From positions 255,934-319,933 of the forward strand of contig JABLUY010000005.1 in assembly GCA_013306675.1 (NCBI GenBank): a stretch of DNA of 64,000 bases. The letters are read 5' to 3'. Below, one piece after another: positions 9,771 to 43,996 of the stretch (position 1 is its first letter; each line of letters opens with the position of its first letter). The notes beneath the pieces are model-generated. The model was not told the origin of the DNA and ran no database searches. It was given only the letters and a program-made list of their open reading frames with translations. Origin of the DNA: Thraustochytrium sp. TN22 (lineage: Eukaryota > Sar > Bigyra > Thraustochytrida > Thraustochytriidae). A program made the position numbers and the translations under genes.

Positions 9771-9859
9771 ATGTTGGACCAGGATGGTATCCGGAGTGCG
9801 GAGGCCATGCCTTCGCGCTGGACAGGCTTCCGGCAGAGGAACAGGCACGCCATGAGGAG

Positions 9860-25487: not shown

Positions 25488-26969
25488 ATGATGCGCACAA
25501 TTGTCATCATTGTCTGCCTTCTCGTCGCACTCATCCCATTCGCGGAGGCCACGTGCGACTGCCAGGTTGTCGGTGCCTCGACGGTTTGTGACGGTTATTG
25601 CGACACATTCCCCGAATATCTCCCCGCCTATAGCTCGGTTACCACGCTGTACGTGGCTGAGCTAAGAATTACAACGAGGGATTTCTTGAAAGGATGGATT
25701 GTTGACTGACTATCTACCTCGCGCTCCAGCCTTTTTGATGTGTACTATGATTCTGAGTGGTATGATTCTTTTGGGCTCCTTGAGTCTGTGCCAGCGTCCA
25801 TCTCAGCATGGACTGGACTGGAGGAACTTCGCATCTTTGGCCACCCCGCGATCTCTTCCCTGCCAGACGAGATCTCCGCTCTTACACGGCTGAGGTACTT
25901 GTGAGTAAGGCTTCGACAAGTACACAGCATGGAACACGCATGACTGGTGAGAGTCGTTAGTAGCCTGCCTGAAGTGGAACTCGTTCGTTGACTCTGTGAG
26001 CTCTCTATGCGACACCACAGGGACATTCCAGATAACAGTCTCACCTCTCTCCCGGACGGTATTCTCGCTTTGACCAATCTCGCTTACCTGTGAGTTACGT
26101 TACGGACTTCTGACGATTGTGCAATATCGAGTCCTGAGGGCGAAACCGGAGCGCAAACGTGGTGGCCGGACAGCTTCAAGCATTGGACGCTTTCCCGCGG
26201 CTGTAATGTGAACTAACGCCGCCACAGAAACGTAGACGATAACGATCTCACAGCACTTCCGAGTGATTTCGGCAATCTAGCGAGCTTGACGTTCCTTAAC
26301 GTGAACGGCGATCTTCTCACATCGTTGCCGATGTCTCTCACGCAACTCACGAGCCTCAATACACTTTATACTTATGGTCTTGACCTACAAGGCCCTCAAC
26401 CCAACATGGCTTTCGTCACGAACCAATACCCGGTGCGCGACTGGGCCAGTTATACGCAATATCCCACCGTTTCACCCACGGCTGAGCCCACGACCGAGCC
26501 CACGGTCGAGCCCACGGCCGAGCCCACGGCCGAGCCCACGGCCGAGCCCACGGCCGAGCCCACGGCCGAGCCCACGGCCGAGCCCACGGCAGAGCCCACG
26601 GCCGAGCCCACGAGAGAACCCTCTGCCAGCCCGACTGCCCTTCCTACCGAAGAGCCCACCTCCTACCCCACCAGCCTGCCGACGGCAGATCCAACTGCCT
26701 ACACCACCAGCCTGCCCACTGCGAATCCTACAGCATTTCCTTCTGCCGGCGATGCAAGCGCCTCGCCCACGGCAACTCCTTCAAGCACCGACGACAACGA
26801 AGACTCTCTCTCGTCCAGCAACGCGGAGGCTCTCGCACCCAGCGAGACGGCTGGTGTTGTGATGGGCACGCTGGTCGCCCTGGCCGGCCTCGGAGCTGCG
26901 GGTGTTTCCGTGCAGCGATACCGTCTTCGAGTCGGGCAGCTTCAGCAGCAGCGAGCTCTGGCCGTCTAA
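25488..26969 (+). CDS. LRR surface protein A: signal peptide, LRRs, Pro/Thr stalk, TM (4 exons)
   Basis: Exons: 25488-25648, 25730-25900, 26021-26089, 26228-26969, giving 380 codons with no internal stop. All three introns are phase 2 and split the Leu codon that closes a repeat; donors are GTACGT, GTGAGT and GTGAGT. Exon 1 encodes a signal peptide (MMRTIVIIVCLLVALIPFAEA) and a CDC...C...CDTFPEY cap. Exon 2 gives a leader plus one LRR, and exon 3 exactly one 23-residue LRR (DIPDNSLTSLPDGILALTNLAYL). Exon 4 holds the last LRRs, a GPQPNMAFV...RDWASY linker, a PTAE/PTxxP stalk of about 100 residues, a TM helix (VVMGTLVALAGLGAAGV) and a short basic tail. It is probably a cell-surface receptor or adhesin. 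Gene B is its inverted paralogue. Confidence 0.85.
26475..26612 (+). repeat. 12-bp tandem repeat encoding PTAE stalk of gene A
   Basis: About eleven copies of CCCACGGCCGAG, encoding Pro-Thr-Ala-Glu, with edge copies degenerate. Such Pro/Thr stalks are often O-glycosylated spacers between a ligand-binding head and a membrane anchor. Confidence 0.9.
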
Positions 26970-27589
26970 ACGTCGGCAACCACCATAAGGAAGTACGGGA
27001 GGCCTCCCTAAGCCCCGGTCCGAACAGGAAGAATCTCATCAAGTCTTATCTCAAATCTCGTCTTGCTTGGTCGCGCTCAACGCGCGTTTGTTGGCCAAGT
27101 TGAATTTGAGCTTTGCTGCAGTTTGCACCGCGTGTGAGGCATCGCGCAAGGATCAGGCCGAGGCACATGAAGCAGTCTCTCGCTCGCGTCTCGCAATGTC
27201 TTGGTATGCTCATGTAACTTAGTTGTGATGCGCCTACGTGCTGCTGCGCGCGGCCTTCAAAACTGCGGCAAACTGCATTCAGCTTGGAACCACCAGGTAC
27301 ATGCTTTCGAGAAGGGGCGACCACGCGCGAGTAGCATTCACTGTCAATGTGCTCTGTGATGGCCTAAATTGCGCGTCGCGCGGCATAGACTGCCCAGCGC
27401 TGAGCTCAACTGGGCGCCGAGGCCGCCGCCCTTTGGCATAGCAGCCTGATTTTCCGTGCGTAGGGCTCGATCGGCCGCAGAAGCCTCGCTTCGCTATACC
27501 GCTCTACGGCGGATGTATCTTTGCAAGCTCTTTTGTGAAAGTAAGATTGTTCGCCTTTTCAGCAGATGGGATTTCTCCCTCTGCCCCAG
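26970..27589. other. Tail-to-tail intergenic region between LRR genes A and C
   Basis: No gene is supported. The segment to about 27345 belongs to the duplicated arm. The rest (27346-27589) is absent from the other arm. Small open frames here have no signal peptide, LRR or conserved motif. Confidence 0.55.
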
Positions 27590-29323
27590 CTACACGGCGC
27601 CTCTGGCGCAAAGGCCTACCGCAAAAAGCGCGCTCATGACGGCCGCAGCCGATGGTGCAAGCGCCACGCTGTCGCTAGGTTTCAGCAGTTCGTCCTCATC
27701 GCCGGTGACGGAGCTTGTAGGCTCTGTTGTTGCAGGCTCCGCTGCAGGCTCCGTCGCCGTTGGAGAGGTCGTAAGGTCTTCGGTGGCCAAGGTCGTGGGT
27801 ACCTCCGTGGGGGACGCAGTAGGCGCTTCCGTAAGTGTCGTGTTTGGAGTCGGCGCCTCCGTCGGATGGTCGGTCGGGGCCAAGGTTGGCTCGGTCGGGG
27901 CATTCGTCGGGCAGGGTGTGTAGCTAGACCAGTCGCGATCTGGGTTCTCCGCGAAGAGGGTGAGCGTGTCCATGTCAGGCTGCTCGCACATGAGATTGAG
28001 GTTGGACGTATGAAGGAACCGCAATGACGAAAGAAGTGTGAAGGTCAGTGGCAGCGACGTAAGTGGGTTGTCGGAGACGTCAAGGTTTGTCAGTGCTGGC
28101 AGAGAGCCCATGCTGCTTGGAAGCGCCTTGAGCTGGTTGGACCTTGCGCTTCTGCGAAAGCGTCGGTAAGCTGAAGAGCGCTGATGAAGTCCTGTCCGCA
28201 ATGCAACGTACAAGTGTACGAGGCTGTTCAGGCTGCCAAACGTGGAGGGAAATGTGACGAGCTGGTTGTTGTCCATCAACCTGTGTGCAAGGAACGAGGA
28301 TGGCTCACATGAGCTCATTCAGTCGGGCATAGATGGTTGTAAGACGCGCCACGTACAGTGAATTGATGCTCGTCGGTAGCCCGTTGAGGCCGTCCGCGAG
28401 CATGGAGTTCTCGCGAATGTCGCTGCAGCGGTGCGGCGCGTTAGATTGCCTGATCGCACCAGAATTTCACTCCGGCGCAGTCTGGGCGACCTGCGCGCCT
28501 GGGTGGTGGTGATTTACGTACAGTTTATGCAGCTCGGTGAGCGCTGATAGTCCAAGAGGCATGTCGGAGAGCTGGTTCGAAAGCAAGGTTCTGAGTTGCG
28601 GAGCCTTCGGTTAGCGCTCGGTGTCCGCGCACTTTCATCCGCTTGCAAGCACATACAGTTTGGAAAGGCTGGCGACACCGAGGAGGTTGCTGGGAAAGGT
28701 GGCGAGGGAGTTCGAGGTGAAGTCACTGCGCGTACATCGGCGGCTCGGCGTGTTAGGAATGTCTCTGGAGACCTACGAGACCACTACGAACCACTCCTCG
28801 AGAAGTGTGAGGGCGCTGATGCTTGCTGGCAGAGCGGCCAAGCCACAGTTGCTCAATGTCCTGGTGACGATTTCAAACGTGGCTATGGCATCAGACAAGA
28901 CTCCGCGTTCGGTCAACATACAGCGCGGTGAGACGTTGAAGACCGCTGATCTCGTCTGGCAAGGTGCTGAGGCCGGTGTGATCGTAGAGCCGCACGGTGT
29001 TGAGTTTTGTCCAGTCTCCCAGCTCCGTTGAGAGTGACGTGAGGCCTAGCGTGCTTCCTCTCCACATCACGCTGGGTTGCGAGCTCGAGTCAGCAACAGA
29101 GTTTCCGAGCCTTGAAAGGGGGCGGGGGCGCCAGCACCTACAGCATAGTCATCCACGTGTAGCTGGAGTAGTCCGCATGACTCGGAAGAGCGTCGCAGTC
29201 ATTGCAGTGTAGCTGGCCCTTGCCATCGCCCATCGCACTGCAATCGCAGGCCGCTTTGGCGAGGGCTGCCAAGCAAGCCACTGTGGCACAGAGAAGCGCC
29301 GAGCGCGCCCCGAGGGGGACCAT
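27590..29323 (-). CDS. LRR surface protein C (8 exons, one LRR per exon)
   Basis: Exons in transcript order: 29323-29142, 29110-28922, 28860-28795, 28725-28657, 28590-28522, 28422-28357, 28280-28212, 28151-27590, giving 424 codons with the stop. All seven introns are phase 2. Exon 1 encodes a signal peptide (MVPLGARSALLCATVACLAA) and the ACDC...CNDCDALP cap. Exons 4, 5 and 7 are each exactly 69 nt and encode one 23-residue LRR; exon 6 (66 nt) gives 22 residues. Exon 3 uses a displaced donor (GTGGTT, 6 nt past the expected place) to keep phase, and is the weakest call. The last exon has two LRRs, an NPDRDWSSYTPCP linker, a PT-rich stalk and a short hydrophobic C-terminus (APSAAAVMSALFAVGL) with almost no cytosolic tail, so GPI anchoring is possible. 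Confidence 0.8.
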
Positions 29324-30176
29324 GCTCGTGCGTGCGCGATCCTTCTCGCGCTGCCCTGGCCGATCTCTTGCGCTGCCTCGCCGCGCTCTTACAATGCCCT
29401 CGCTGCACTCTTGCTCGCTACCTCGCCGTCGAGCAAGACTAGCAACTTGAGATGCACTCGCTCGGGTTGCGGTTCTGCTCGGGTAGCTCCGTGGCCCAGC
29501 CTGCCAGAGAGAGGGGGGGTCATGGTCACGTGGCCCGGCCGCTCTGCCTGGCCGGGCGCCCCGGGCCGACTCGGTCTCCATCACACGCCTCACAGTCAGG
29601 CTGCCTTTTGTCAACTTGGTTTTACTGCGACACAGCGGTGGCGGCGGTGACAGCCTGAGCGCCAAGGCAAGTACGGTACGTACGACTCGGATTGTCCGAT
29701 GCCTACCAGCAACAAAAAATGACGCCATTTCATCGGCGGGCCGCTGGCCCATCTTCGAGTCGGACTCGATCAGCACCCAGCGGTCGATGGCGACTCCAGC
29801 ACATCTGTCCACTGGCAACTTGAAAGTACGGCGGGACCAACTGAGCTGAGCTGAGTCACGGACTCGGAGCCTGAGATGGGAAGGACGGCAGCCTGAGGGC
29901 GAATTGCCGCGCGCCTGATGGACTGGTGGAAGCAACTTGAACGCAGCCGAATGCACACCGTGCCGGTGCAGGTAGCCAGCCTGAGCACTGGTGTTTTAGT
30001 AGGCGGCGCAGGCGGCGCAGGCGGCGCCGCCCGCCGGCGCGGCAGCCGCTTCTCACACCTTCCATGCTCGCTCGTCCAAGCGGGCCGGGGCCAAGCGGAG
30101 CGAGTACGACTCGCAGACTGTAAGTTATCTTAGTGGCAGCGTTTTCGCACGCAGCGCGGCTGATTCTTTCTACGTT
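29324..30176. other. Intergenic region between LRR genes C and D
   Basis: No gene is supported; it should contain the promoter of gene C. It has a CACAGTCAGGCTGCC element near 29590 like one upstream of the ankyrin gene, and GAGTCGGACTCG-type motifs near 29757 and 29855. Confidence 0.5.
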
Positions 30177-33100
30177 TTAGGCGTCTTCGTCGGCCGAAAC
30201 CTGCTTGGCGCTGGCCCCACCCGGGCCTGACTGCGAAGCCGCGAGTGCCTCTTGCTCACTGGGCCGGGGCTGGAAGCGCTGCTGCATGTTGTCCATGGCG
30301 CGGCCCATGGCCCCGCGCGCGGATCCCGCAAGAGAGACAGCATTCGCCTTTGCAGCCGCAGCCCTCGCCTTGGTGGTGTCCCACGCAGCGGAGCTCCTCG
30401 CGGCCAACGCAGCAGCGCGCGTCGGCTGGCCAGAAGCAGGCGGTGCGTCGCCTCCACCACTACGTGCCTTCTGATAGCGGCGCCGGGCAAAGTAGACCAC
30501 GGCACCGAGAGCGGCCAGCGCGAGCAGCGTTCCGATCACCGCGCCGGCCGTGTCGCCTGCCGAGGACGACTCGCCACTGTCTGAATCCGCAGCGGCGGGT
30601 CCGCCGCCTGAGCTCCTGCCCACGCGCACGGTAAAGCTCGTCGCCGACTCCGAGACCGCAATCGTCGGCTCTGCCTTGCCGCTCGCATCGCACGCGGCCG
30701 GCAACGCAAAGCTGATCGCGGCCTGCACCTCAAACGCCACCTCCGAGTCGGTTGCCGTGATGTGCGACGCATCTGTCACGCACGCTGCCAGCTTGGCCGC
30801 CAGCGCGCCGCTGCCAATGTTGAGCGAGTACACCCCGTCGGCCGCGGTGCTCTCGGCCAGGGTTTCGTCGCAAACGTCGCCGAGCTGTAGCGCGAGCGAG
30901 GCCGGGAATGCGCAGCCCTCACTCGCAAAGATGCTCTTGGTGAGCTCCACGTTGACCACGAGCGCACCGTGGGTCTCGGTCTGCTCGCCAGAAAAGTCCG
31001 CGACGGCAAAGTTGGGCTGGGCCAGGTCGGCCCGCGTCGTGATGTGGCCGGCTTTGACCGCGACGCTGACCGTGCCGCTGCTGGACATGAGTCTGTTGAG
31101 CATGTACAGCAGCACGAAATCGTCGGGGTTCTCGAACTCGGCCGCATTTGCAAAAGTGCCGTTCCAGTTGACAACGCAGCCCACCTCGGGATCCGTTTCG
31201 AGCTCCACCGTGTAGTTCGTACCCGAAGCCATCGAGTAGAGCACCGCCTTGCTCATGGAACAGTTCAGGTCCTCTGGCACCGTGTAATCCGAAGTGAGTG
31301 ATTTGGCCACCGGCAGCGGAGCCACGAGCGGGGTGATGATCTTGTGCGTGAGCGTATTGATGTCCTCGGACAGGATGAGGTCGAAGAGGTCTCCATCATG
31401 ATCGGGACCGCGCTTGACGCCTGTGCCAAGCGCTTCGTAGGTGAAAGCTGACGAGTCGAGGACCGTGCCGTCCGGCTCGCAGCAGTTATCCACGGCGCAC
31501 ACAGAGCAAAAGGTTGCCGAGACGAAGCCGGTAGGCGCCGTCGTGGGCAAGTCGGTCGGGTAGGCGGTGGGCTCCTCCGTGGGATAGGCAGTCGGGTATG
31601 CCGTGGGATCCTCCGTGGGATATGCGGTCGGATCGGCAGTCGGATCGGCAGTCGGAACGGGAGTCGGGCTGGGAGTAAAGCTGGCCCAGTCACGGTTCGG
31701 CTGATCCACGATGAGCCCGAGCGAGTCCATGTTGGGCTGAGGCCCGTCTAGATTGAGGTTACTCGTGACCAGGAACTTGAGAGCGGTTAAATGCGTGAAG
31801 GTCATCGGTAGGGAGGTGAGTTCACCGTTGCTGGACACGTCGAGGATGCTTAATCTCGGTAGGTAACCCATCGCACTCGGAAGTGCGGTCAAACTGTCGG
31901 ACACCATGGAACTGCGTACGAAGGTCAGACAGAGCGCGGACCTCTCGCCACGACAAAAGAACATACAGGGCGCCGAGCTTCGTGAGGCTCGTGATGTTTG
32001 ACGGGATCGCGGTAAGCTGGTTGGAGTTGAGGTAACTGTTCACGATGTGGCCCATACGTGAGTGCTCCAAGTGATTTATAGCCACTTCTTCAATCAGTCA
32101 GAGGCTACCACGTACAGAGTTACGAGGCTCTTCAGATCTGTGATCACGTCCGGAAAGGAAAGAAACGAGTTCTTGACAAGATTCCTGCAGGAGTTCGATA
32201 ATGTCAGGTCACGGTGCTGACGCGGGTAAACGAAAGAAGGCGGGTGGATGGGTCACTTACAGATACGTGAGTGCCGTGAGATCGGAAAGTTCGACGGGCA
32301 AAGTAGAAAGCAGGTTCGAGCTCAGCGTCCTGTGCGTGCGATCGCATTTGTGTGAGGCGGATCTGCATGCCTATGGACGGAACGAACAACAGTTCTCGCG
32401 TCAAACGTACATGCTCTTAAGATTCCGCACGTCAGAGAGCCAGGTTGGGACGCTGGTGAGTAGGTTGTTGTTCAGATCGCTGTGACTCTTTGCGAATGAG
32501 TATTGCTGTGTACGTGCAGAAGGCGTGGCCGGGGCCGGCTGGGCGTCGTACCCGGCCCAGCCGGGCCAAATACGACCCGACTCACATTGTCTCGAGAGTG
32601 GATATCGTGGAGAGAGATGTGGGCATCTCCGACGCGCCGATACTTTGCGCGGAGCTGCGGATCGCCGGGCCGGTGCCGTGAGCTATGTTTCAGCTGGCCA
32701 TGCATGCGCAGAAGTTCACGTACAGCAGCGTCAGACGAGTCAATGCCGAGAAGTCGGCAGGCAGGGTGGAAAACTGGTTGGAGTTCAGTTTCCTGCGCGG
32801 TTGTACCACGTGTCAGCCTTGAGCATTCCCGGCTCATTTGTGGACATGCAGCACTTCACCTACAGGTTGAGGAGCTTTGTGAGACTAAGAAGGCCGCTTG
32901 GGAAGGTCACGAAAGAGTTCGAGCTCATGTCGCTGCGCGCGGAGAAGAGACTCGCTTCGTCAGCCATCGCTGGGTGAGCGAGGTATTGCGCCCAGCGCCG
33001 AGTTCTTACACGGTGTGCAACATGGAATGCAGGGACGAAACTCCGGTCGGAAGGGTGCTCACCTTGTTTTGGGCCATGGACCTGGGCAAGCGAAGGAGTG

Positions 33101-33701
33101 AGTAACTTTCTCCGGTTGCATCGCGGGTGCGGGGGGAGTGGGCCGGGGTGAGAGAGCACGCGGGGTGCTGGCCCGGTCCTACCTAACTTACAGCGTCATG
33201 AGAGCCGACAAGCCGCTGATACCCTCCGGAAGGGCGGTCAGGCCAAGGTTGGTGAGGTACCTAGCGTAGTTGCACCACGTGAGCCATGCTGGCAACGCGA
33301 CCCTCAATTTCTTCCCGACTCACAGAAAAGAGAGCATAGACAGGCTGCTGATCTCGTTCGGCAAGGACGCGAGGTTGGTATGGTCGAGAATGGACAGGTA
33401 GTGGAGGTTCGACCAGGCCGAGATGGACGTCGGGACCGACACCAAACCAGTCGACACGCCCTTTCTGATGGCGCTGTGGACCAGTCATCGGTCAGCATCT
33501 ATTCACCTCCCAAGCAACGCCAGAGTACACAACCTACAGCGTCTCGATGACGGAGTGCGTGGCGGCCTCGTACGTTGGGAAGGTGTCGCAGTCGATGCAG
33601 TTGAGCATTGTAGTTGAGAGAATCGAGCACGAGCAGGTCGCCGCTGCGCCCATGGCCACCAAACCAGCGACCAACACCCAAAAGAGCGCCGTCGTGTGCA
33701 T
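30177..33701 (-). CDS. LRR receptor-like protein D with large Cys ectodomain, TM and long cytosolic tail (11 exons)
   Basis: Exons: 33701-33538, 33473-33324, 33260-33192, 33081-33010, 32932-32864, 32792-32724, 32479-32411, 32329-32261, 32184-32116, 32035-31967, 31911-30177; 868 codons including stop, all ten introns phase 2. Exon 1 gives a signal peptide (MHTTALFWVLVAGLVAMGAA) and CSC...CIDCDTFP cap. Exons 3 and 5-10 are each 69 nt, one 23-residue LRR apiece; exon 4 is 72 nt because its donor has shifted 3 nt. The last exon ends the LRRs, then has a DQPNRDWASF linker, a short PTAYPTEEPTAYP stalk, a ~300-residue Cys-containing ectodomain not seen in A-C, TM (VIGTLLALAALGAVVYF) and a ~90-residue Ala/Arg/Gln-rich tail. 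Probably a plasma-membrane receptor. Confidence 0.85.
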
Positions 33702-34857: not shown

Positions 34858-36132
34858 TCACTTGCCGTCTGGGATGGCCTCGATCTCGATTTCATCGTCC
34901 TCGTCGCCTTCAACGCCGTCCAGCCACTCGTAGAGAAGATACATGTTGTTCTCCTCGGCAATGTGCTCGAGTCCCGAGAGGATGGTGTATACGTTGAGCA
35001 TGCCATCCTCCTTCCAGCCGTCGTAGAGGTCCATGAGCTCCTGCTTGTGGAAAGAAATCTTGGCGAGCTCGATCTGCATCTCGTAGTAGTCGACGATGGA
35101 GTTGTGCTTGGAGGGGTCGAACTTCTCCACGTTCGGCGCGTGCATGGAGATCTTCTGGCCAACGCGAGTGCGGATCTGGTTCAGGTCGACCTCCTTCTCT
35201 TCATCCGCGAGCGTCCCGGAAATACTCTGCATGTCGGTCTCCCAATCCTCGATGACGTCAAGCTTGAGCAGCGGGTAGTCGTGCGCCTTGAGCTTGGCAA
35301 AGAACTTCTCCACGGACTCGCGGATCTCCTTCTCGTCCTCGTCCACGTCCTCGCCCTCATCGTTCTCGTCGAGAACACCGTACTGGTCGTAGTCGTGGGC
35401 CTTCCTGTTGGACTCCTTGGCGTCGTCCTTGGAGACGTCGACGCCAAAGAGGTTCTGCATCTTCTCCCGGAAGCGGTCCTCCTCCTTGCGATCGAGCTCG
35501 ACATCGCTCACTATAGCGTGCGCCACTCGCTTGAGGCTGTGCTTGGCGTTGTCGGCCACGCGCTGGAAGTGATGCAAGAAGTTGTCAAAGGACCCGTCCA
35601 GGTTCTTGCGCAGCTCGTCCGTTGACTTTTCGACAGTGGAGACCACGTCGTCGTCCACGCCGGCATTCCTCAGCGTCTTGAGCACCGACGTGGAGTAGTC
35701 GCCCAGGGCGTACTCGGCGATGGACCGGAACTCCTCGAATCTGCTCGTCTCGTGGATCTCCGTCTCTAGCGCCTTTTGCAACTCCAGGTGCGCCTTCATT
35801 AGCCTCACCTGCGCCTGGTGTTCCAGCTCGTGGTGCACGCGCTCGGCCTTCATTGCCTCGCGCCGCGACACGCGCACCTGGAGCACCGTGTTGAAGAGCA
35901 CCAGCAGGCCCACGCCGAAGATGGCCAGAATCAGCAGCAGCGTCTTCATCGCCCAGTTCTGCCTGACGATGTACGCGCGCTCCTTGTCGCCCGACCCAGC
36001 CTTGGTGCTCTTGATGCCGGCCATCGTCATGCCCTTGTCGAACGCCGACTGCAGCTTCACGGCCGTCGGCGGCCCGCCGCCCAGCCCGCCGGCCCCGCCG
36101 CCGCCTCGCTGCTTCGTGTGCGTCGGCAGCAT
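34858..36132 (-). CDS. Single-pass membrane protein with long acidic helical C-terminal region
   Basis: From the ATG at 36132 the protein has 424 residues; the frame extends upstream only through low-complexity, Arg/Ala-rich sequence. There is a Gly-rich N-terminus, a basic stretch (KERAYIVRQNWAMK), then one TM helix (TLLLILAIFGVGLLVLFNTVL, about residues 65-85). This suggests a type II anchor. The rest is charged and mainly helical, with acidic patches (DENDEGEDVDEDEKE), a conserved-looking block FDPSKHNSIVDYYEMQIELA and an acidic end (DGVEGDEDDEIEIEA). I do not recognise the family. It faces away from the tRNA methyltransferase gene. Confidence 0.75.
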   Translation of the reverse strand: MLPTHTKQRGGGGAGGLGGGPPTAVKLQSAFDKGMTMAGIKSTKAGSGDKERAYIVRQNWAMKTLLLILAIFGVGLLVLFNTVLQVRVSRREAMKAERVHHELEHQAQVRLMKAHLELQKALETEIHETSRFEEFRSIAEYALGDYSTSVLKTLRNAGVDDDVVSTVEKSTDELRKNLDGSFDNFLHHFQRVADNAKHSLKRVAHAIVSDVELDRKEEDRFREKMQNLFGVDVSKDDAKESNRKAHDYDQYGVLDENDEGEDVDEDEKEIRESVEKFFAKLKAHDYPLLKLDVIEDWETDMQSISGTLADEEKEVDLNQIRTRVGQKISMHAPNVEKFDPSKHNSIVDYYEMQIELAKISFHKQELMDLYDGWKEDGMLNVYTILSGLEHIAEENNMYLLYEWLDGVEGDEDDEIEIEAIPDGK

Positions 36133-36737
36133 CCTGCCGCGCCGCCTCCCGCCGCCTCGCCGCGCGCCGTGCCGTGCCCGCCGCCGCCGCCGCCGCCGCG
36201 CGCAGCCCACCGCAGCCCAAGCCAGCCCACCGCAGCCCACCGCAGCCCAGCGCCGCGGGCCGCCGCCGCCGCGCGCGCGGAGGCTCGCCGCGCCCCCTCG
36301 CCGCCGCGCGACCTCGGCGGCCGCCTCCGCGTCCGGCTCCGCCGCGCCCAACCCGCTCTGCGCGATCGTCACCATCCTCCTCCTCTCCAACGTGTCGCGG
36401 TGGGACCCAGCCGGATTCCGGGACCGCCGCCGCCCGCCGCCGCGGCAGGCCAGGCAGGCAGGCAGGCCGGGAGCGTGGGTGTGCGCCGGGGTGTGCGTGC
36501 GGACCCCGGGCGCGGCCCCGCCTGGCCTGAGTGGCCCCGCGGCGGCGCCTCGCACCGCCATGGGCACAGGCAGGTAGGTGGTGGAGGCCGCCGCCGCCGC
36601 CGCCGCCAGCGCGCAGGGAGAAGCGCGCGAGCCGCCACGCGGAGCCGCAGCGCAGGTCGCGGCCGGCGGAGCGCAGCAGCCGCGGGTCGGCGCGGGCAAG
36701 GCCGGCACCGCGGCGCGGGCGGGCTCCGGGCTCGAGC
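36133..36737. promoter_or_regulatory. Shared divergent promoter region
   Basis: 605 bp separate the divergent starts of the membrane protein (36132, minus) and the tRNA methyltransferase (36738, plus). The region is very GC-rich with GCC runs and a GGCAGGCA array near 36448-36463. No TATA box is visible. Confidence 0.4.
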
Positions 36738-37754
36738 ATGGAGGGCGAGGGCGCCGCGCGCGGCTCGAAGCGGGAGCGCGAGGGCGAGCTGGACAAGGTG
36801 CGCTGGCCGCTGTGGTACCACGCGCGGCGCCGCACGGTGTCCAAGCGGCAGAAGGCGACGCTGCGCGACGTCTGGCCGGCGATCGGGAAGGAGCTGCGCA
36901 GCGTCGCCTTCGGCGAGCCCATCGACCTGGACGCCTGGTTTGAGGCCGACCTGGACGCGTGGCTCGAGGCCGGCAAGCAGCAGACCAGCAGCTGTAGTCA
37001 GGAGAACAAGGAGGACAGGGATGAGAAGCTCGCTTTGAGCAGTGGAGAGGAGGAGGCGGCGGGGCCGCCGCGCACCGTGCTGGACGTCGGCTTCGGCACG
37101 GGCGACTCCATCTTGGAGCTGGCGGCCCGGCACCCGCGGGACCGCTTCCTGGGCCTGGAAATCTACCGCGCTGGCCACGCGCTCGTGGCGGAGGCCTGCG
37201 TCGAGCGCCGCCTGCGTAACATCCGGCTCTTCGGCGGCGAGGCGACCAAGTTTCTGCAGCGGAACTGCTCGGACGCGAGCTTTGACACTGTGCAGGTTTT
37301 CTTTCCGGACCCCTTTAGCAACAGCGACCTCGACATGAACTGCCGGCTGCTGAGCGCCGGCTTCTTGGAGATGCTCGCGCCCAAGCTGCGGGCCGGCGGC
37401 GTGCTGCACGTGGCCACTGACGTCGGCCGCTACATGCTGGACGTCGTAAACCACCTCACCACGGGCCGCAACACCTCCTTGTGGCGCGTTCGCAGCCTTG
37501 GCAAGAGTGCTGGACCTGCGGACCGCCTGGCGGATGCCCAGGAAGTTCGGGACGAGGTGGAAACAGAGCGCGAGCTTGAGGCGCGGGCGAAGGAGCTCGG
37601 CGTGCCACTCGGCGCGCGCCCAGAGGCGCGGCCGCGCACCAAGTTCGAGGAGAAGGCCGTCGTGGAGGGCCGGTTTGTGTGGGACCTCGAGGTGGACGTG
37701 CTCGCAGCGAGCGCGACAGCCGCAGAGGCACCGTCTCCCTCTCTAGCTAGCTAG
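36738..37754 (+). CDS. tRNA (guanine-N7)-methyltransferase, TrmB/METTL1-like, divergent
   Basis: TrmB-family enzymes methylate G46 of tRNA using S-adenosylmethionine. From the ATG at 36738 the protein has 338 residues. The SAM-binding motif VLDVGFGTGDSILELAARHP sits at about 114-133 and continues into FLGLEIYRAGHAL, both diagnostic for TrmB. A second signature follows near 187 (VQVFFPDPF) and a TD motif (LHVATDVGRYM). The canonical PDPW-x-K-x-RHxKRR segment reads PDPFSNSDLDMNCRL here, so the basic tRNA-contacting residues are missing. The N-terminus carries an extra acidic loop (about 80-110). Start choice: the upstream frame to 36531 has only non-ATG starts. The 3' end runs into a TAGC microsatellite that supplies the stop. 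Confidence 0.85.
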   Translation: MEGEGAARGSKREREGELDKVRWPLWYHARRRTVSKRQKATLRDVWPAIGKELRSVAFGEPIDLDAWFEADLDAWLEAGKQQTSSCSQENKEDRDEKLALSSGEEEAAGPPRTVLDVGFGTGDSILELAARHPRDRFLGLEIYRAGHALVAEACVERRLRNIRLFGGEATKFLQRNCSDASFDTVQVFFPDPFSNSDLDMNCRLLSAGFLEMLAPKLRAGGVLHVATDVGRYMLDVVNHLTTGRNTSLWRVRSLGKSAGPADRLADAQEVRDEVETERELEARAKELGVPLGARPEARPRTKFEEKAVVEGRFVWDLEVDVLAASATAAEAPSPSLAS

Positions 37755-37766
37755 CTAGCTAGCTAC
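37743..37766. repeat. (TAGC)n microsatellite at the 3' end of the TrmB-like gene
   Basis: About five CTAG units span the end of the reading frame; the stop codon TAG itself lies in the repeat. Length changes here would alter the last residues of the protein. A GA-rich run follows. Confidence 0.85.
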
Positions 37767-37828
37767 TAGAGCGAGAGCGAGAGAGAGAGAGAGTGGTCGC
37801 GAGAGGAAACGAGCGAGAAGGGAGGCCC

Positions 37829-39415
37829 TCAGCCGAGTGATGCGAAAAGCGACGAAAGGTCCTGGCGCTGTGGGCAGTCCATCTCGCGTACCGAGAGCGC
37901 CGAGGCGCGCAGCGGCGTGGCGGCATGGCGAAGACCTGTGCGAGCACGGTGCTCGAGACGCGGCGACTCGGCCCCATAGCGCAGCTTGCGCACACGCAGA
38001 GACTCGGCGCTCTGCGCCAGCACGCGCGCCGCCTCGCTGTCCCGCTCCACAGAACTGCGGAGTGGCGTCTGGGGCCGCGGCGGCAAGCCGCAGTCTGAGG
38101 CCGCTGCTGCCGTCGCGGCTGGCGCCCACGCCGCTCGCGCCGTCAGCAGCGCCTCGCACTCCCGGAGCGAGTCGCGCAGCACGCGTGACTCCTGCGCCGC
38201 CACCCCGGCGGACCTCCGGCTCTGCGCGGCGGCGCGCTCGAAGCTCTGCGCGAGCTGCGCGAGCTTCGTGCGCAGGCCCTGGGTGCAAGAGCGCTCCGTG
38301 TGCAGGTCAGCGCGCGCCGCGGCCAGCGCCTGCGCGGCCTCGTCACGTTCGCGCGCCACGGCGGCCGTCGCGCTGGCCTGCTCCTCGCGCGCGAGCCGCA
38401 GGTCAACCTGCAGCTTGGCGAGCTCGGTGCGCGTTTGTGCGAGGTCGTCGTCGCCCCGGCCGCCGCGCTCGCGTGCCGCGGCCAGCTCGAGGCGGGCGAC
38501 GTCTCGCTCGTGCTGCGCCTGGCGCGCCGTGGCCTCGGCACGGTCCGCGCGACGGCCGGCCTCCTCCAGGCGCGCGTTAGCGCTGCCAAGTTGGTCCTCG
38601 AGCAGCCGAGTGAACTCGCCGCCGCTGGCGCGTGCGGCCTCGAGGCGCTCCTCCAGGCGCGTCGCTGCGCTGCGAGCGTCCGCCAGCTCCGCGTTGGCCT
38701 GTTTTGAAGCGAGGCGGGCTTCCTCATGCGCCTCGGCTAGGAGTCGCTCGAGCTCGGTGACGCGCGCGCGGTGCGTGTCGCGGTCCGCAGCGACAGCCGC
38801 CTGCTCCTGCGCCTCGTCGCGCGCCGCGACCGCGCTCGCCTCGAGTCGGCGCACCTGCTCGCGCAGCGCCTCGTTCTCGCCCTGCAGCGCTCGGTTCTCG
38901 TCGCAGGCGCGCGCGGTGGCTTTGATTTGCATGGCGAGCGCGGCCTCCTCGTCGCTCGCAGCCTGCAGGCGCCGGCGCGTGGCGTCCAGGTCGGCACGCA
39001 GCGCTGCGGCCTCCTCGCGGCTGCGCTGCAGGTCGGCCTCGGTGGCCGTCAGCCGGCCCTGGGTCTGCTGCAGCGCGCGCTGCGCGAGCTTCGCGTCCTG
39101 CTGCAGCCGCTGCAGGGCGCCCTCTCGCGCGCGCAGCTGCGTCGTGGCCTCCTCAAGCCGCGAGTCCAGCGAGGCGCACTTGCTCTCCAGCAGTGTCTCC
39201 GTGGACTGCAGAAAGCTATTCTCGTACTCGAGCCGCGTCAGCTCCTCCTCGGACGCCGCGCACGACAACGACGCCGTCGCATCCCAGGACGCCAGCCGCG
39301 CCCGCGGCGCTGATGCCGTCGACGGCCGCGACGACCACGACCACGCCCCGGACGCCCGCTGCTGCAGCGCGTCCATGTCCTCCAGGATCTCGCGCAGCTC
39401 TGTGTCCTCCGCCAT
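37829..39415 (-). CDS. Ala/Arg-rich long coiled-coil protein
   Basis: From the ATG at 39415 the protein has 528 residues; another in-frame ATG at 39463 would add 16. Residues 1-70 are Ser/Ala-rich and disordered. From about 75 to 430 it is continuous coiled coil with very regular Ala-Arg-Glu-Leu heptads (LEYENSFLQSTETLLESKCA onward). The C-terminal ~100 residues are Ser/Arg/Pro-rich and end with DLSSLFASLG. The pattern resembles centriolar or ciliary rootlet-type proteins, but composition alone cannot decide. It converges on the TrmB-like gene with a 74-bp gap. Confidence 0.75.
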   Translation of the reverse strand: MAEDTELREILEDMDALQQRASGAWSWSSRPSTASAPRARLASWDATASLSCAASEEELTRLEYENSFLQSTETLLESKCASLDSRLEEATTQLRAREGALQRLQQDAKLAQRALQQTQGRLTATEADLQRSREEAAALRADLDATRRRLQAASDEEAALAMQIKATARACDENRALQGENEALREQVRRLEASAVAARDEAQEQAAVAADRDTHRARVTELERLLAEAHEEARLASKQANAELADARSAATRLEERLEAARASGGEFTRLLEDQLGSANARLEEAGRRADRAEATARQAQHERDVARLELAAARERGGRGDDDLAQTRTELAKLQVDLRLAREEQASATAAVARERDEAAQALAAARADLHTERSCTQGLRTKLAQLAQSFERAAAQSRRSAGVAAQESRVLRDSLRECEALLTARAAWAPAATAAAASDCGLPPRPQTPLRSSVERDSEAARVLAQSAESLRVRKLRYGAESPRLEHRARTGLRHAATPLRASALSVREMDCPQRQDLSSLFASLG

Positions 39416-40202
39416 GCTCCGATTCTGCGCAATTCCGCGCGATTCTGTGATGCCGCCAACCATTGGCAACGAAGCTGCGCTACTGCTGCGCACGGCGGCG
39501 GCGGTTTCTACATCGCACACCCCATCCTCGTGGTCAAAGTGCTAACTTCACCAAAAGAGTCACGAATCCGAGTCCGAATCCAACTTCAAGTCCGAACCGC
39601 CAGTCACACAGTCAAAGCCTGTCAAAGCGTCGTGACTTGCACTCGCCGACTTGAACAAACTCGTCTCTCGTTATGCTCACCTCGCTCGTGGCATGCATGC
39701 ATGGCTTGGAAGGGAGCATCGCAGCGATGGGCAGCGCGCAAGCAGCCGCAAGCCAAGCAGCCGCAAGCAGCTGAGCTCAGCTGAGCGGCGGCCTTGGCGG
39801 TGTTTTTATGCTCACTAAATCCCGCCCTCTCGAGCCCCCCGAGCTGCGACAGTGCCGCAAAGTTCCTTGCTCGTCGAGCAACACGTCCCAGACCCGCCGC
39901 CTAGCTAGCTAGGCACCTTTCACGTTGCAGCGCGCGGTTTGCAAGCTGTTTTGGTTACTTGGTATCCCGCCGCTAAACTGTAAGTGGTACTGCCCCCTCG
40001 GCCGTCACCGCGCCAGCCCGAGAGCGGCACGGGCACGCGAGCGAGCGTCCCGCCGGCGGCCCAGGCCGGGCAGACGCGCAACGCGAGCGGAGCGCGCGCG
40101 GGAGGAGGCAGGAGAGCAGGCTCGCGCACGCGCGTGCGCTCGCGGCGGGCGACCTCGCCTGAGCTGTCGCGGGCCGGCCTCAGGCTGAGCAAAGCCGGAG
40201 CC
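39416..40202. promoter_or_regulatory. Divergent intergenic region between coiled-coil and P450 genes
   Basis: 787 bp with no gene. It includes a GAGTCCGAATCC-type motif about 150 bp upstream of the coiled-coil ATG, AGCAGCCGCAAGC repeats near 39745-39770 and a CTAGCTAGCTAG run near 39901. It should contain both promoters. Confidence 0.45.
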
Positions 40203-41819
40203 ATGACGATGCTGGTACAGCGCGTGAAGCTCGTGCTGCGGCTGCTGCTCGTCGCTGGCGTGGCGGGCCTGGTGCGCATGGTGCTGCGGTTCGTGCGCAT
40301 CCGCAACCTGATGCTGCGCAAGAACCCGCACCTGGACGCGCGGTCGCTGTACACGGGCGGGCTCATGGGCGCGACGCTGGAGGCGGTCAAGAACCGCAAG
40401 CGGCTGTATGACTACCGCCTGGACCGGAAGAAGAAGTACGGCCGCACGGCGATGGTGATTAGCGCGCTGTGGCGGCCGGTGGCCATAGTGAGCACGTCGG
40501 ATCCAGCGAACGTGAAGCACATTCTGCGCACGGAGTTCGACAACTACATCAAGAGCGACACGCTGATGGTGCTGCTGGGGCCGCTTCTGGGCAAGGGCAT
40601 CTTTGCCACGAACCACGGGCCGCACGCCGCGGACAAGGGCGCGGACTGGCTGCTGCAGCGTAAGACGGCGTCGAAGATCTTCACGCGCAACGTGTTTCAG
40701 GGCAAGATGTATGACGTCTTCGCGCAGAACGCGCACAAGGTGGCGGCGCGCCTGGAGCGCGCTGGCGGCACGCAGCCCGTGGACCTGCAGATGATCTTCT
40801 TCAAGTTCACCATGGACTCCATCGGCACGGTGGGCTTTGGCGTGGACCTTCAGACCCTCGATAAGGAGGAGAACGCGTGGTTCGCGGATTCCTTCGACCA
40901 GGCACAGAAGCTGAGCTTTTGGCGCATCGCGCTGCCCTTCTTCGAGTACCTGGGCCCGATATACAAGGCAGAGCGCGAGCTGCACCACCACATCGCCAAG
41001 ATGGACGAATTCTGCTACGAGGTCATCAACGAGCGCCTGGCCGACCCGGACGTGCGCGGCAAGCAGGACATCCTCTCGCACTTCATCACGCACTTCCGCG
41101 ACGAGAAGCTGCTGCCGCTCGACGGAGAGGAGGCGCCGGCCAGCACGCGCAAGTACCTGCGCGATGTGGTCATGAGCTTCTTCATTGCCGGCCGCGACAC
41201 CACGGCCTGCGCGCTATCCTTCACCTTCCTCATCCTCGCCACACACAAGGACATCCAGGAACGCCTCTTCCAGGAGATTCAGGCGGAGCTGTCCGAGGCA
41301 GGCCAAGACGGCGCCGACCTGCAGCCGCCCACGCTTGAGCACCTCAAGCGCGGCTTCCCGTACCTGAACGGCCTCATCATGGAGAGCCTGCGCCTCTTCC
41401 CGCCCGTGCCCAGTGATGGCAAGATGGCCTGCACGGACGATGTGCTGCCGGATGGCACCTTCGTGCCCAAGGGCGGCATCGTCAACTTTGACATTTACAG
41501 CATGGGTCACTCTGTGGAGCTCTGGGGCAACGATGTCGACGAGCCGCGCCCGGACCGCTGGATCCTCGAGGACGGCTCCAAGCGCGAGGTCGAGGAGTGG
41601 ATGTTTCCCGTCTTCCAGCCCGGCCGCCGCAAGTGCCTTGGCGCCGACCTCGCCGTCTTCGAGGCCAAGGTGCTCACTGTCGAGCTCGCGCGGCGCTTCA
41701 CGATCCAGCTTGCGCGCCCCGTGCAGGACCCTCCTTACAGCGCCGGCATCACCATGACCGTCGAGGGGGGGCTGCCCATCCTTGCCACTCCACGCGTGCC
41801 TGCCGAGTCCAGCGCGTGA
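40203..41819 (+). CDS. Cytochrome P450, CYP86/CYP704-like fatty-acid hydroxylase
   Basis: A 538-residue microsomal P450. An N-terminal membrane anchor (about 8-28, VLRLLLVAGVAGLVRMVL) is followed by a complete P450 fold. The I-helix oxygen-activation motif is AGRDTT at 329-334. The K-helix ExxR is ESLR at 394-397. The PERF-type element lies near PRPDRW, and the heme loop FQPGRRKCLG at 471-480 supplies the axial Cys478. FFIAGRDTTACALSF and the length resemble the CYP86/CYP94/CYP704 clan, whose members omega-hydroxylate fatty acids; substrate here is inferred, not shown. The ATG at 40203 directly precedes the anchor. No intron is evident. Neighbouring DNA to the right is the LRR duplication arm. 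Confidence 0.93.
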   Translation: MTMLVQRVKLVLRLLLVAGVAGLVRMVLRFVRIRNLMLRKNPHLDARSLYTGGLMGATLEAVKNRKRLYDYRLDRKKKYGRTAMVISALWRPVAIVSTSDPANVKHILRTEFDNYIKSDTLMVLLGPLLGKGIFATNHGPHAADKGADWLLQRKTASKIFTRNVFQGKMYDVFAQNAHKVAARLERAGGTQPVDLQMIFFKFTMDSIGTVGFGVDLQTLDKEENAWFADSFDQAQKLSFWRIALPFFEYLGPIYKAERELHHHIAKMDEFCYEVINERLADPDVRGKQDILSHFITHFRDEKLLPLDGEEAPASTRKYLRDVVMSFFIAGRDTTACALSFTFLILATHKDIQERLFQEIQAELSEAGQDGADLQPPTLEHLKRGFPYLNGLIMESLRLFPPVPSDGKMACTDDVLPDGTFVPKGGIVNFDIYSMGHSVELWGNDVDEPRPDRWILEDGSKREVEEWMFPVFQPGRRKCLGADLAVFEAKVLTVELARRFTIQLARPVQDPPYSAGITMTVEGGLPILATPRVPAESSA

Positions 41820-41964
41820 GCCCTCGTTTCAGCATGCGGCACACATGACATGCGGCATGAGGCGCGCTGGGTTGTTTTTCTCGAGATTTGATTTTATTTC
41901 CCCCCATTGTAGATTCCAAGCGTTGGTCGGAAGCAAAGACGCGCTCGAGACCCACAGGGCCTGC

Positions 41965-42120
41965 TCTCTCCTTCTCGGAGAAAACCCAGAGCATGACTGG
42001 TCCAGCTCCACACCCTGCTCGACGGATGCCTCGAGGAGCCAACCTTAGCCCCGACCAACCATCCGACGGAGGCACCGACTGCTGATACGACACTCGCAGA
42101 GGCGCTTACTGCGGTCAGGC
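41965..42120 (+). pseudogene. Fragment of an LRR gene C copy (linker plus PT stalk)
   Basis: About 150 bp are clearly related to the last exon of gene C. GAGAA..CCCAGA..GACTGGTC.AGCT.CACACCCTGC is followed by GAGCCAACCTTAGCCCCGAC and sequence encoding EPTLAPTNHPTEAPT. Relative to gene C there is an insertion after GAGAA and a 2-nt deletion before the PT segment, so no single frame reads through. It lies next to the right duplication arm in the position and orientation expected for a second gene C copy. Confidence 0.75.
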
Positions 42121-42510
42121 CGTCGCACAGCACATCGGATGCTACTCGCACGTGGGCGCTACTCGAAAGCATGTATCTGGCAGTTTCAAGCTCAAGCAAT
42201 TTACCTCAGTTTGAAAGGCCGCGCACAACAGCACCTAGAAGCATCACCACAACATGAGCATACCAAGACATTCTGCGAGACACGGGCGAGAGACTGCTTC
42301 AAGTGCCTCGGCCTGATCCTCGCGCGACGCCTCACATCACAGTCTTTCGCAGTGCAGACTGCAGCAAAGCTCAAAGTTCACTTGGCCAACGAACGCGCGT
42401 TCAGTGCGGCCAAACAAGATGAGATTTGAGATAAGACTTGGCGAGATTCTTCATGTTCGGACCGGGGCTCTGGGAGGACACCCATGCTTCCTTATGGTGG
42501 TTGCCGACGT

Positions 42511-43996
42511 TTAGACGGCCAGAGCTCGCTGCTGCTGTAGCTGCCCGACTCGAAGACGGTACCGCTGCACGGAAACGCCCGCAGCACCGAGGCCGGCCAG
42601 AGCGACCAGCGTGCCCATCACAATCCCGGCCGTCTCGCTGGGTGCGAGAGCCTCCGCGTTGCTGGAAGAGAGAGAGTCTTCGTTGTCGTCGGTGCTCGAA
42701 GGAGTTGCCGTGGGCGAGGCGCTTGCATTGCCCGCAGAAGGAAATGCTGTAGGATGCGCAGTGGGCAGGCTGGTGGGATAGGCAGTTGGATCTGCCGTCG
42801 GCAGGCTGGTGGGGTAGGAGGTGGGCTCTTCGGTAGGAAAGGCGGTCGGGCTGGCAGAGGGTTCTCTCGTAGGTTCGGCCGTGGGCTCGGCCGTGGGCTC
42901 GGCCGTGGGCTCGGCCGTGGGCTCGGCCGTGGGCTCGGCCGTGGGCTCGGCCGTGGGCTCGGCCGTGGGCGCGGCCGTTGGGTCTGCTGTCGGCTGGCGG
43001 GTAGGGTATTTAGTTGGGTCCGCAGTAGGCTCGTTCGTCGGTGAAACGGTGGGGTATTGCGTATAACTGGCCCAGTCACGCACCGGGTGTTGGTTCGTGA
43101 CGAAAGCCATGTTAGGTTGAGGGCCTTGTAAGTCGAGACCATAAGTATAAAGTGTATTGAGGCTCGTGAGCTGCGTGAGCGACATCGGCAACGATGTGAG
43201 AGGATTGGAGCTCACGTAAAGGGACGTCGAGCTCGATAGATTGCCGAAATCACTCGGAAGTGCTGTGAGACCGTTGTATTCTACGTTTCTGTGGCGGCGT
43301 TAGTTCACATTACAGCCGCGGGAAAGCGTCCAATGCTTGAAGCTGTCCGGCCACCAAGTTTGCGCTCCGGTTTCGCCCTCAGGACTCGATATTGCACAAT
43401 CGTCAGAAGTCCGTAACTTACAGGTAAGCGAGATTGGTCAAAGCGAGAATACCGTCCGGGAGAGAGGTGAGACTGTTGTATCCAATGCTCCTGTGGTGTC
43501 GCATAGAGAGCTCACCGAGTCAACGAACGAGTTCCACTTCAGGCAGGCAACTAACGACTCTCACCTGTCATGCGTATTTCATGCTGTGTTCGTGTCGAAG
43601 CCTTACTCACAAGTACCTCAGCCGTGTAAGAGCGGAGATCTCGTCTGGCAGGGAAGAGAGCGCGGCGTTGTCTTGCATGAAAAGTTCCTCCAGGCCAGTC
43701 CATGCTGAGATGGACGCTGGCACAGGCTCAAGGAGCCCTTCAGAACCAAACACATCAAAAAGGCTGGAGCGCGAGGAAGATAGTCAGTCAACAATCCATC
43801 CTTTCAAGAAAACCCTCGTTGTAGTTCTTAGCTCAGCCACGTACAGCGTGGTAACCGAGCTATAGGCGGGGAGATATTCGGGGAATGTGTCGCAATGGTC
43901 ACAAGTCATCGAGGTACCCATAGGTTGGCAGTTGCACCAGGCCTCCGCGATTGGGATGATTGCGACGAGAAGGCACACAACAATCATGCGCAACAT
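42511..43996 (-). CDS. LRR surface protein B, inverted paralogue of A (4 exons)
   Basis: Exons: 43996-43845, 43763-43611, 43490-43422, 43288-42511, giving 384 codons including stop. Intron positions and phase 2 are identical to gene A. Exon 1 encodes MLRMIVVCLLVAIIPIAEA and a WCNC...CDHCDTFPEY cap, one residue shorter than A between the last cysteines. Exon 3 is one 69-nt LRR. Exon 4 holds the final LRRs (SSSTSLYVSSNPLTSLPMSL), the GPQPNMAFV...RDWASY linker, a Pro/Thr stalk, a TM helix (IVMGTLVALAGLGAAGV) and a tail ending QQQRALAV, as in A. The LRR face differs from A (NVEYNGL against NVDDNDL), while signal peptide, linker and TM are nearly identical. That is consistent with divergence concentrated in the repeat region. 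Confidence 0.85.
42872..42976 (-). repeat. 12-bp tandem repeat encoding PTAE stalk of gene B
   Basis: About eight copies of the same 12-bp unit as in gene A, read on the minus strand. Copy number and flanking units (PTNEPTADPTKYPT, PTRQPTADPT) differ from A, showing independent expansion after duplication. Confidence 0.9.

What the first reader, a model, noticed from the sequence alone, without database searches (positions are those of the whole stretch)
25488..43996. Exon-modular LRR receptor cluster: every intron phase 2, about one repeat per exon
Four LRR genes (A 25488-26969, B 42511-43996, C 27590-29323, D 30177-33701) have 23 introns in total, all phase 2, splitting the Leu codon at repeat boundaries. 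Eleven internal LRR-only exons in A, C and D, and one in B, are exactly 69 nt (23 codons). Any such exon can be skipped, duplicated or exchanged without frame change. Surrounding housekeeping genes are intronless or nearly so. A similar design is known for brown-algal LRR-ROCO genes, where exon shuffling was proposed to diversify receptors. Here it appears in secreted or membrane LRR proteins with Pro/Thr stalks, a different architecture. Joined exons sum to whole codons in all four genes.
Basis: partly seen in the sequence, partly recalled or inferred. Interest (0 to 1): 0.9.

Follow-up and report, generated by a model that had tools for sequence, protein, structure and literature searches.

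The report
Protist surface proteins, one repeat per exon
Four neighbouring genes of an unidentified eukaryote encode leucine-rich-repeat surface proteins in which most repeats sit on their own frame-neutral exon; this gene design is already known from plants, brown algae, ciliates and animals, and the two youngest copies differ mainly in a narrow strip of probable ligand-contact residues.

Summary
Genes A-D carry 24 predicted introns (not 23), all phase 2 in my models. Donor phase, read from a leave-gene-out LRR profile, is 2 for 15 of 15 testable donors; 9 of 24 were untestable. Of 16 one-repeat internal exons, 14 are exactly 69 nt. The split codon is Leu at 20 of 24 introns. A CTNAC branch-point motif occurs in 19 of 24 introns, against 4.0 in shuffles.

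The design is not new. Rice LRR kinases split the same codon (first Leu of xxLxLxx) in phase 2; brown-algal ROCO, Tetrahymena LRR and gonadotropin-receptor genes are also reported as phase 2.

Shuffling is only partly supported. Homologous ends enclose 1, 1, 5 or 9 one-repeat exons, so exon units were gained or lost. No recent exon copies were found, and the only young pair (A/B) has identical exon order. A and B differ instead just after the repeat-start Leu: in four middle repeats 25 of 84 nt, every changed codon nonsynonymous, against 12 of 334 nt in introns (post hoc). This fits diversifying selection on a binding face. Expression, exon skipping and function are untested, and the organism is unidentified.

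The parts
25488..26969 (+). Gene A: 380 aa; hydrophobic N-terminus, Cys-containing N-cap, about 6 LRR-like units, PT-repeat stalk, C-terminal membrane segment, 18-aa tail; 3 phase-2 introns (25649-25729, 25901-26020, 26090-26227)
42511..43996 (-). Gene B: 383 aa, inverted young paralogue of A with the same exon structure; 3 phase-2 introns
27590..29323 (-). Gene C: 411 aa; 7 phase-2 introns; P/T-rich stalk by composition; hydrophobic C-terminus with a 6-aa tail (GPI-like)
30177..33701 (-). Gene D: 890 aa; 11 phase-2 introns; PT stalk, extra ectodomain without a match in the libraries searched, membrane segment, 102-aa tail
25488..25648 (+). A exon 1, 161 nt (signal peptide and N-cap)
25730..25900 (+). 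A exon 2, 171 nt, two repeats
26021..26089 (+). A exon 3, one-repeat exon, 69 nt
26228..26969 (+). A exon 4, terminal exon (last repeats, cap, stalk, membrane segment)
43845..43996 (-). B exon 1, 152 nt
43611..43763 (-). B exon 2, 153 nt, two repeats
43422..43490 (-). B exon 3, one-repeat exon, 69 nt
42511..43288 (-). B exon 4, terminal exon
29142..29323 (-). C exon 1, 182 nt
28922..29071 (-). C exon 2, 150 nt, two repeats
28792..28860 (-). C exon 3, 69 nt
28657..28725 (-). C exon 4, 69 nt (its first base completes the split Cys codon)
28522..28590 (-). C exon 5, 69 nt
28357..28422 (-). C exon 6, 66 nt, divergent repeat; no LRR-profile hit ending at its donor
28212..28280 (-). C exon 7, 69 nt
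27590..28151 (-). C exon 8, terminal exon
33538..33701 (-). D exon 1, 164 nt
33324..33473 (-). D exon 2, 150 nt, two repeats
33192..33260 (-). D exon 3, 69 nt
33010..33081 (-). D exon 4, 72 nt
32864..32932 (-). D exon 5, 69 nt
32724..32792 (-). D exon 6, 69 nt
32586..32654 (-). D exon 7, 69 nt, degenerate repeat
32411..32479 (-). D exon 8, 69 nt
32261..32329 (-). D exon 9, 69 nt
32116..32184 (-). D exon 10, 69 nt
31967..32035 (-). D exon 11, 69 nt
30177..31911 (-). D exon 12, terminal exon (last repeats, stalk, ectodomain, membrane segment, tail)
24408..27325 (+). A-side arm of the inverted duplication (partner 42151-45065, minus strand)
42151..45065 (-). B-side arm of the inverted duplication

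Best explanation
The four genes are one family of cell-surface leucine-rich-repeat (LRR) proteins in an unidentified GC-rich, apparently intron-poor eukaryote. Constant ends (signal-peptide and cap exon, two-repeat exon, terminal stalk and anchor exon) enclose a variable number of one-repeat exons with phase-2 introns on both sides. Because each exon begins and ends in the same codon of the repeat, unequal recombination or intron-mediated duplication can add or remove whole repeats without frame change; this built the 1/1/5/9 series. Recent duplicates are then diversified mainly by amino-acid replacement at the start of each repeat, on the presumed concave binding face. The proteins most likely act as recognition or adhesion molecules; signalling would need a partner. 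Shown from sequence: the predicted exon anatomy, the constant ends and the localised A/B divergence. Inferred: splicing in vivo, the recombination route, surface location, ligand binding and function.
For: Gene models and phases. Intron signals. LRR domains (A, C, D) and PT-stalk model (A). Hydropathy. Homologous ends with differing numbers of middle exons. A/B: introns differ at 12 of 334 aligned nt; x residues of xxLxLxx (a set used in plant R-gene work, PMC3113787, passages) differ at 12 of 30 codons against 13 of 101 in the rest of the LRR region (Fisher p = 0.0025); their nt changes are 20 of 90 against 12 of 334 in introns (p = 1.4e-7), while the rest of the LRR region (20 of 303 nt) is not significantly above introns (p = 0.10). 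dN at those codons exceeds dS of the LRR region (p = 0.0025) and of the whole gene (p = 0.015; rounded counts). Post hoc: in the four middle repeats the seven codons after the repeat-start Leu carry 25 of 84 nt changes, with 17 of 28 codons changed, all nonsynonymous (codon list); the rest of those units carries 6 of 192.
Against: No transcripts or strains; no relative in the two collections scanned. Only one young gene pair is available for the selection test. The strip count leaves out the first and last of six repeat units; in those the strip has no replacement (4 alignable codons unchanged in the first, two synonymous changes in the last). The a-priori xxLxLxx mask is not the best register: shifts of +2 and +5 codons give a higher fraction of changed codons (12 of 28 and 12 of 25 against 12 of 30), and sites -2 and -1 hardly vary. 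Intron divergence (3.6%) is lower than flank divergence (13-17%) and than dS after the LRR region (0.17), so introns may be converted or constrained and not a clean neutral yardstick. C/D exon order is not significantly collinear. No signalling domain was found.
Confidence: 0.65

Rival explanations
1. Active exon shuffling: whole LRR exons are exchanged between these genes, or skipped by alternative splicing, to make many receptor versions, as proposed for brown-algal ROCO genes.
For: All 20 internal exons are symmetric 2-2 and all introns share one phase in the models, so any exchange keeps frame; one-repeat exon numbers differ 1/1/5/9; exon shuffling with splice variants is reported in brown algae (PMC11378527, passages).
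Against: Apart from A3/B3 (91%), the best ungapped identity between any two of the fourteen 69-nt exons is 65% (C4/D5), and within a gene 61%; apart from A against B, the only intron-intron match at E up to 0.1 is a 19-nt stretch of A and B intron 2 with D intron 7 at E 0.08; A and B have the same exon order; no LRR unit outside the four genes scored below E 0.8 in a six-frame scan.
Confidence: 0.2
2. Structural LRR proteins (cell wall, scale or adhesion) with inherited exon structure and no recognition role; the localised A/B divergence comes from short-tract conversion or relaxed constraint.
For: No signalling domain; P/T-rich stalks suit wall or matrix proteins (inference); A/B divergence is uneven along the block; B keeps C/D-like residues in one repeat where A differs (alignment).
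Against: Strip replacements exceed intron and synonymous divergence, which relaxed constraint alone does not give; conversion from C or D should also bring changes into the adjacent repeat core, which is almost unchanged (6 of 192 nt).
Confidence: 0.3
3. Introns are late arrivals (introner-like insertions) rather than copies carried along by exon duplication.
For: Intron signatures are scarce outside these genes.
Against: Non-homologous introns share almost no sequence; they sit at one codon position and one phase repeat after repeat, which independent insertion would not be expected to produce.
Confidence: 0.04

Closest known systems
Plant LRR receptor-like kinases (rice; PMC3050792, abstract and passages seen)
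   Same: Phase-2 introns that usually split the first Leu of xxLxLxx; short exons holding one or two repeats; exon duplication and shuffling proposed
   Different: One-repeat exons mostly 72 nt as I read the passage (its wording is 'intron containing 72 nucleotides'), against 69 nt here; plant genes add a kinase domain, not found here
Brown-algal LRR-ROCO genes (PMC11378527, passages seen; Zambounis 2012 not held)
   Same: One repeat per exon, reported as phase 2; candidate recognition proteins; positively selected sites on the concave face
   Different: 72-bp exons; ROC-COR GTPase; the stated coding span (nt 3-71) leaves their exact register unclear to me
Tetrahymena 90-bp LRR exon arrays (PMC6564038, passages seen)
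   Same: Uniform exon length, more than 96% of these exons flanked by phase-2 introns, exon-unit duplication
   Different: 90-bp exons; over 1,000 LRR genes in most species; association with a retrotransposon
Gonadotropin receptors of vertebrates (only as stated in PMC11378527)
   Same: Similar-sized LRR exons, all introns phase 2
   Different: G-protein-coupled receptors, no PT stalk (recalled)
Plant receptor-like proteins such as Cf-type (recalled, no call)
   Same: Extracellular LRR, single membrane segment, short tail without kinase
   Different: No homology test was made; plant-type 24-aa repeats (recalled)

Membership tests
LRR genes built from one-repeat, phase-2 symmetric exons (a design, not a clade) | Internal exons each encode one LRR and are multiples of 3 | tested here: met
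   16 of 20 internal exons hold one repeat, 4 hold two; 20 of 20 are multiples of 3
LRR genes built from one-repeat, phase-2 symmetric exons (a design, not a clade) | Introns phase 2 in the first Leu codon of xxLxLxx | tested here: met
   Phase 2 at 15 of 15 testable donors, 9 of 24 untestable; Leu at 20 of 24 split codons
LRR genes built from one-repeat, phase-2 symmetric exons (a design, not a clade) | Splicing confirmed by transcripts | not testable with these tools
   No RNA data available
LRR-ROCO | ROC-COR GTPase domain | tested here: not met
   Pfam scan of A, C and D (E up to 0.01) found LRR and PT models only; B not submitted
LRR receptor-like kinase | Cytoplasmic kinase domain | tested here: not met
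   No kinase in the Pfam scan of A, C and D; tails of 18 aa (A, B), 6 aa (C), 102 aa (D)
LRR receptor-like protein (RLP-like architecture) | Signal peptide, extracellular LRR, one membrane segment, no kinase | tested here: inconclusive
   Hydropathy fits for A, B and D, no dedicated predictor used; C looks GPI-like; descent not tested
Tetrahymena-type arrays | 90-bp exons | tested here: not met
   69 nt in 14 of 16 one-repeat exons, none of 90 nt

The most novel reading that the evidence does not exclude
In a largely intron-poor protist genome, introns have been kept almost only in a surface LRR family because they act as break points for repeat gain and loss, while each young duplicate is diversified in a short strip just downstream of the repeat-start Leu where the introns fall: a two-speed recognition repertoire that independently reached the same intron phase as plant, brown-algal, ciliate and vertebrate LRR genes, and the same codon as the plant ones.
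Probability: 0.25. Interest if true: 0.75.

Novelty: new member of a known kind. Interest (0 to 1): 0.45.

Why it matters
The same intron phase is reported in LRR genes of plants, brown algae, ciliates and vertebrates, and at least in rice the same codon is split. An apparently intron-poor genome with the same design would help separate common descent of LRR exons from repeated convergence. The A/B pair gives a ready test of whether protist surface LRR proteins evolve like plant resistance genes.

Tried and rejected
Identifying the organism: no genome is held for the window. PDB matches of the Slu7 and PRPP-synthetase ORFs do not place it; Rfam and ARAGORN found no rRNA or tRNA. I name no taxon.

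Relatives: profile A1 found none confirmed in viral contigs (26 pattern matches) or genome contigs (25 pattern matches). Those collections are of viruses and prokaryotes, so this says little.

Gene finding by codon usage over-predicted introns and was dropped.

Structure of the D ectodomain: single-sequence AlphaFold2 gave mean pLDDT 34.3, so no fold search was made. No Pfam, NCBIfam or PDB match for that stretch. NCBIfam matches of the D terminal exon to XopAC and XopAE lie far below their cut-offs (25.6 of 450 and 20.7 of 600 bits) and cover only its first 54 residues, the repeats: generic LRR resemblance.

PDB search with the D LRR region matched generic LRR proteins (301 sequences, best 60 listed, LRRD1 and SHOC-2 among the top); it adds nothing on function.

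Template-directed hypermutation (diversity-generating retroelement) was considered for the A/B strip and dropped: several changed codons also differ at third positions (list), and no further copy of the exon was seen in the window. No reverse transcriptase appeared in the 27 window ORFs scanned with Pfam (one of these listings was cut at 25 of 31 families).

C/D exon collinearity: 10 of 120 permutations reach the observed score, not significant.

Literature: nine searches. I saw no 69-nt one-repeat family with PT stalks in those listings; the library lacks most subscription papers, so this is weak. Passages of PMC4053784 and PMC11863921 were seen and are not used.
Full report
What is there. 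Spliced models of the four genes are open from start to stop: A 380 aa, B 383, C 411 and D 890. All 20 internal exons are multiples of three; 16 encode a single repeat and 14 of those are 69 nt (one is 66, one is 72). The split codon is Leu in 20 of 24, with Cys, Val, Ile and Met once each. In the repeat, the split residue is the first Leu of xxLxLxx.

Are the phases real? The acceptor listing from which I assembled the models admitted only phase 2 and proves nothing by itself. Three other checks bear on it. A fewest-introns model without phase or repeat preference (3, 3, 4 and 8 introns) traced back to phase 2 in every gene, though C and D have co-optimal mixed paths (6 of 12 and 8 of 16 co-optimal paths are pure phase 2); no gene allows a phase-1-only model, and only C allows a phase-0-only one, with a worse score. 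A model using splice signals alone gave phase 2 for 21 of 24 introns, with C the exception at 4 of 7; it differed from the final models at 11 of 24 introns, 10 in the acceptor and one in the donor. Last, a repeat profile trained without the gene under test (A and B left out together) fixes the reading frame before each donor: 15 of 15 testable donors are phase 2, 9 of 24 being untestable. The introns carry GTRNGT donors in 22 of 24 and a CTNAC motif near the 3' end in 19 of 24, against 4.0 expected from shuffling.

Surroundings. Eight ORFs with Pfam matches (PRPP synthetase, MFS transporter, an NBAS-like Sec39 protein in a 3909-aa frame, P450, M20 peptidase, Slu7, GMC oxidoreductase, TIR-NTPase-WD40) show no intron signature in 27.7 kb. 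Of 29 strong signatures in the window, 21 lie within the four LRR genes, which make up 8.2 kb of 64 kb, and 8 elsewhere, 19 were on the sense strand of the LRR genes and 2 antisense. The ORFs were found because they are long and open, so the contrast is biased to an unknown degree.

Architecture. Pfam finds LRR models in A, C and D and the PT repeat model in A, with a sub-threshold PT match in D and none in C (B was not submitted). The stalks are 62-65% Pro, Thr, Ser and Glu in all four. Hydropathy gives a hydrophobic N-terminus in all four, a membrane segment with an 18-aa tail in A and B, a membrane segment with a 102-aa tail in D, and a hydrophobic C-terminus with 6 further residues in C, which resembles a GPI signal (no dedicated predictor). 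No kinase, TIR or GTPase domain was found in A, C or D. D carries an extra ectodomain without a match in the libraries searched; its structure prediction failed.

Evolution by exon units. Exon 1, exon 2 and the terminal exon align across all four genes; between them lie 1, 1, 5 and 9 one-repeat exons. This is exon-unit gain or loss. It looks old: apart from A3/B3 (91%), no two 69-nt exons exceed 65% identity, and within one gene none exceeds 61%. C/D exon order fits collinear descent only weakly (10 of 120 permutations as good). Apart from A against B, the only intron match is a 19-nt stretch at E 0.08.

Evolution of the young pair. A and B are arms of an inverted duplication of about 2.9 kb. 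Their exon number and order are the same. Introns differ at 12 of 334 aligned positions. The x residues of xxLxLxx, a set used in plant resistance-gene work (PMC3113787, passages seen), differ at 12 of 30 codons against 13 of 101 for the rest of the LRR region (p = 0.0025), and at 20 of 90 nucleotides against the intron rate (p = 1.4e-7); the rest of the LRR region, 20 of 303 nt, is not significantly above introns (p = 0.10). Their dN exceeds dS of the LRR region (p = 0.0025) and of the whole gene (p = 0.015) (rounded counts). Looking closer, and after the fact, nearly all the excess falls in the seven codons after the repeat-start Leu: in the four middle repeats 25 of 84 nt and 17 of 28 codons, every changed codon nonsynonymous, against 6 of 192 nt in the rest of the same repeats (codons). 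The first and last of the six repeat units were left out of that count; their strips hold no replacement, 4 alignable unchanged codons in the first and two synonymous changes in the last. The classical mask is not the best register, since shifts of two or five codons give a higher fraction. Introns may themselves be conserved or converted, because the flanks differ by 13-17%; against synonymous sites the excess is smaller but present. One pair cannot settle selection.

Reading. The most likely account is a family of surface recognition or adhesion proteins whose repeat number changes by whole exons and whose binding strip is diversified by replacement. Splicing, ligand binding and function are untested.

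Comparison. The design is known. Rice LRR kinases have phase-2 introns that usually split the same codon, with short one- or two-repeat exons, most of 72 nt as I read the passage (PMC3050792, abstract and passages). Tetrahymena has 90-bp phase-2 LRR exons (PMC6564038, passages). Brown-algal ROCO genes have 72-bp one-repeat exons described as phase 2, and the same paper states that gonadotropin-receptor introns are all phase 2 (PMC11378527, passages). What differs here is the 69-nt unit, the stalked and apparently anchored proteins without a recognised signalling domain, and the apparently intron-poor setting. I therefore rate it a new member of a known kind.

Noticed in passing
60720-63998 (+), runs off the window: Open frame with TIR_2, NPHP3-type NTPase, TANC1-like winged-helix and WD40 matches (listing cut at 25 of 31 families): a STAND-type protein of the kind linked to immunity or cell death, in the same window as the LRR cluster. 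No NCBIfam match.
   Followed up: partly
9689-21418 (+): Single uninterrupted 3909-aa frame with Sec39 and KNTC1-type ARM matches (NBAS-like), no intron signature.
   Followed up: partly
24408-27325 and 42151-45065: Inverted duplication of about 2.9 kb carrying A and B, with C, D and a P450 gene between the arms; introns are less diverged (3.6%) than flanks (13-17%).
   Followed up: partly
26475-26690 and 42746-43053: 12-nt PT-stalk repeats; A and B differ by 36 gap columns in the terminal exon.
   Followed up: no
30615-31553 (-): D ectodomain of 313 aa with no Pfam, NCBIfam or PDB match; single-sequence structure prediction failed.
   Followed up: partly
25488-25648 and 43845-43996: The signal-peptide and N-cap region of A and B is also fast-evolving (dN 0.17, dS 0.14).
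   Followed up: no
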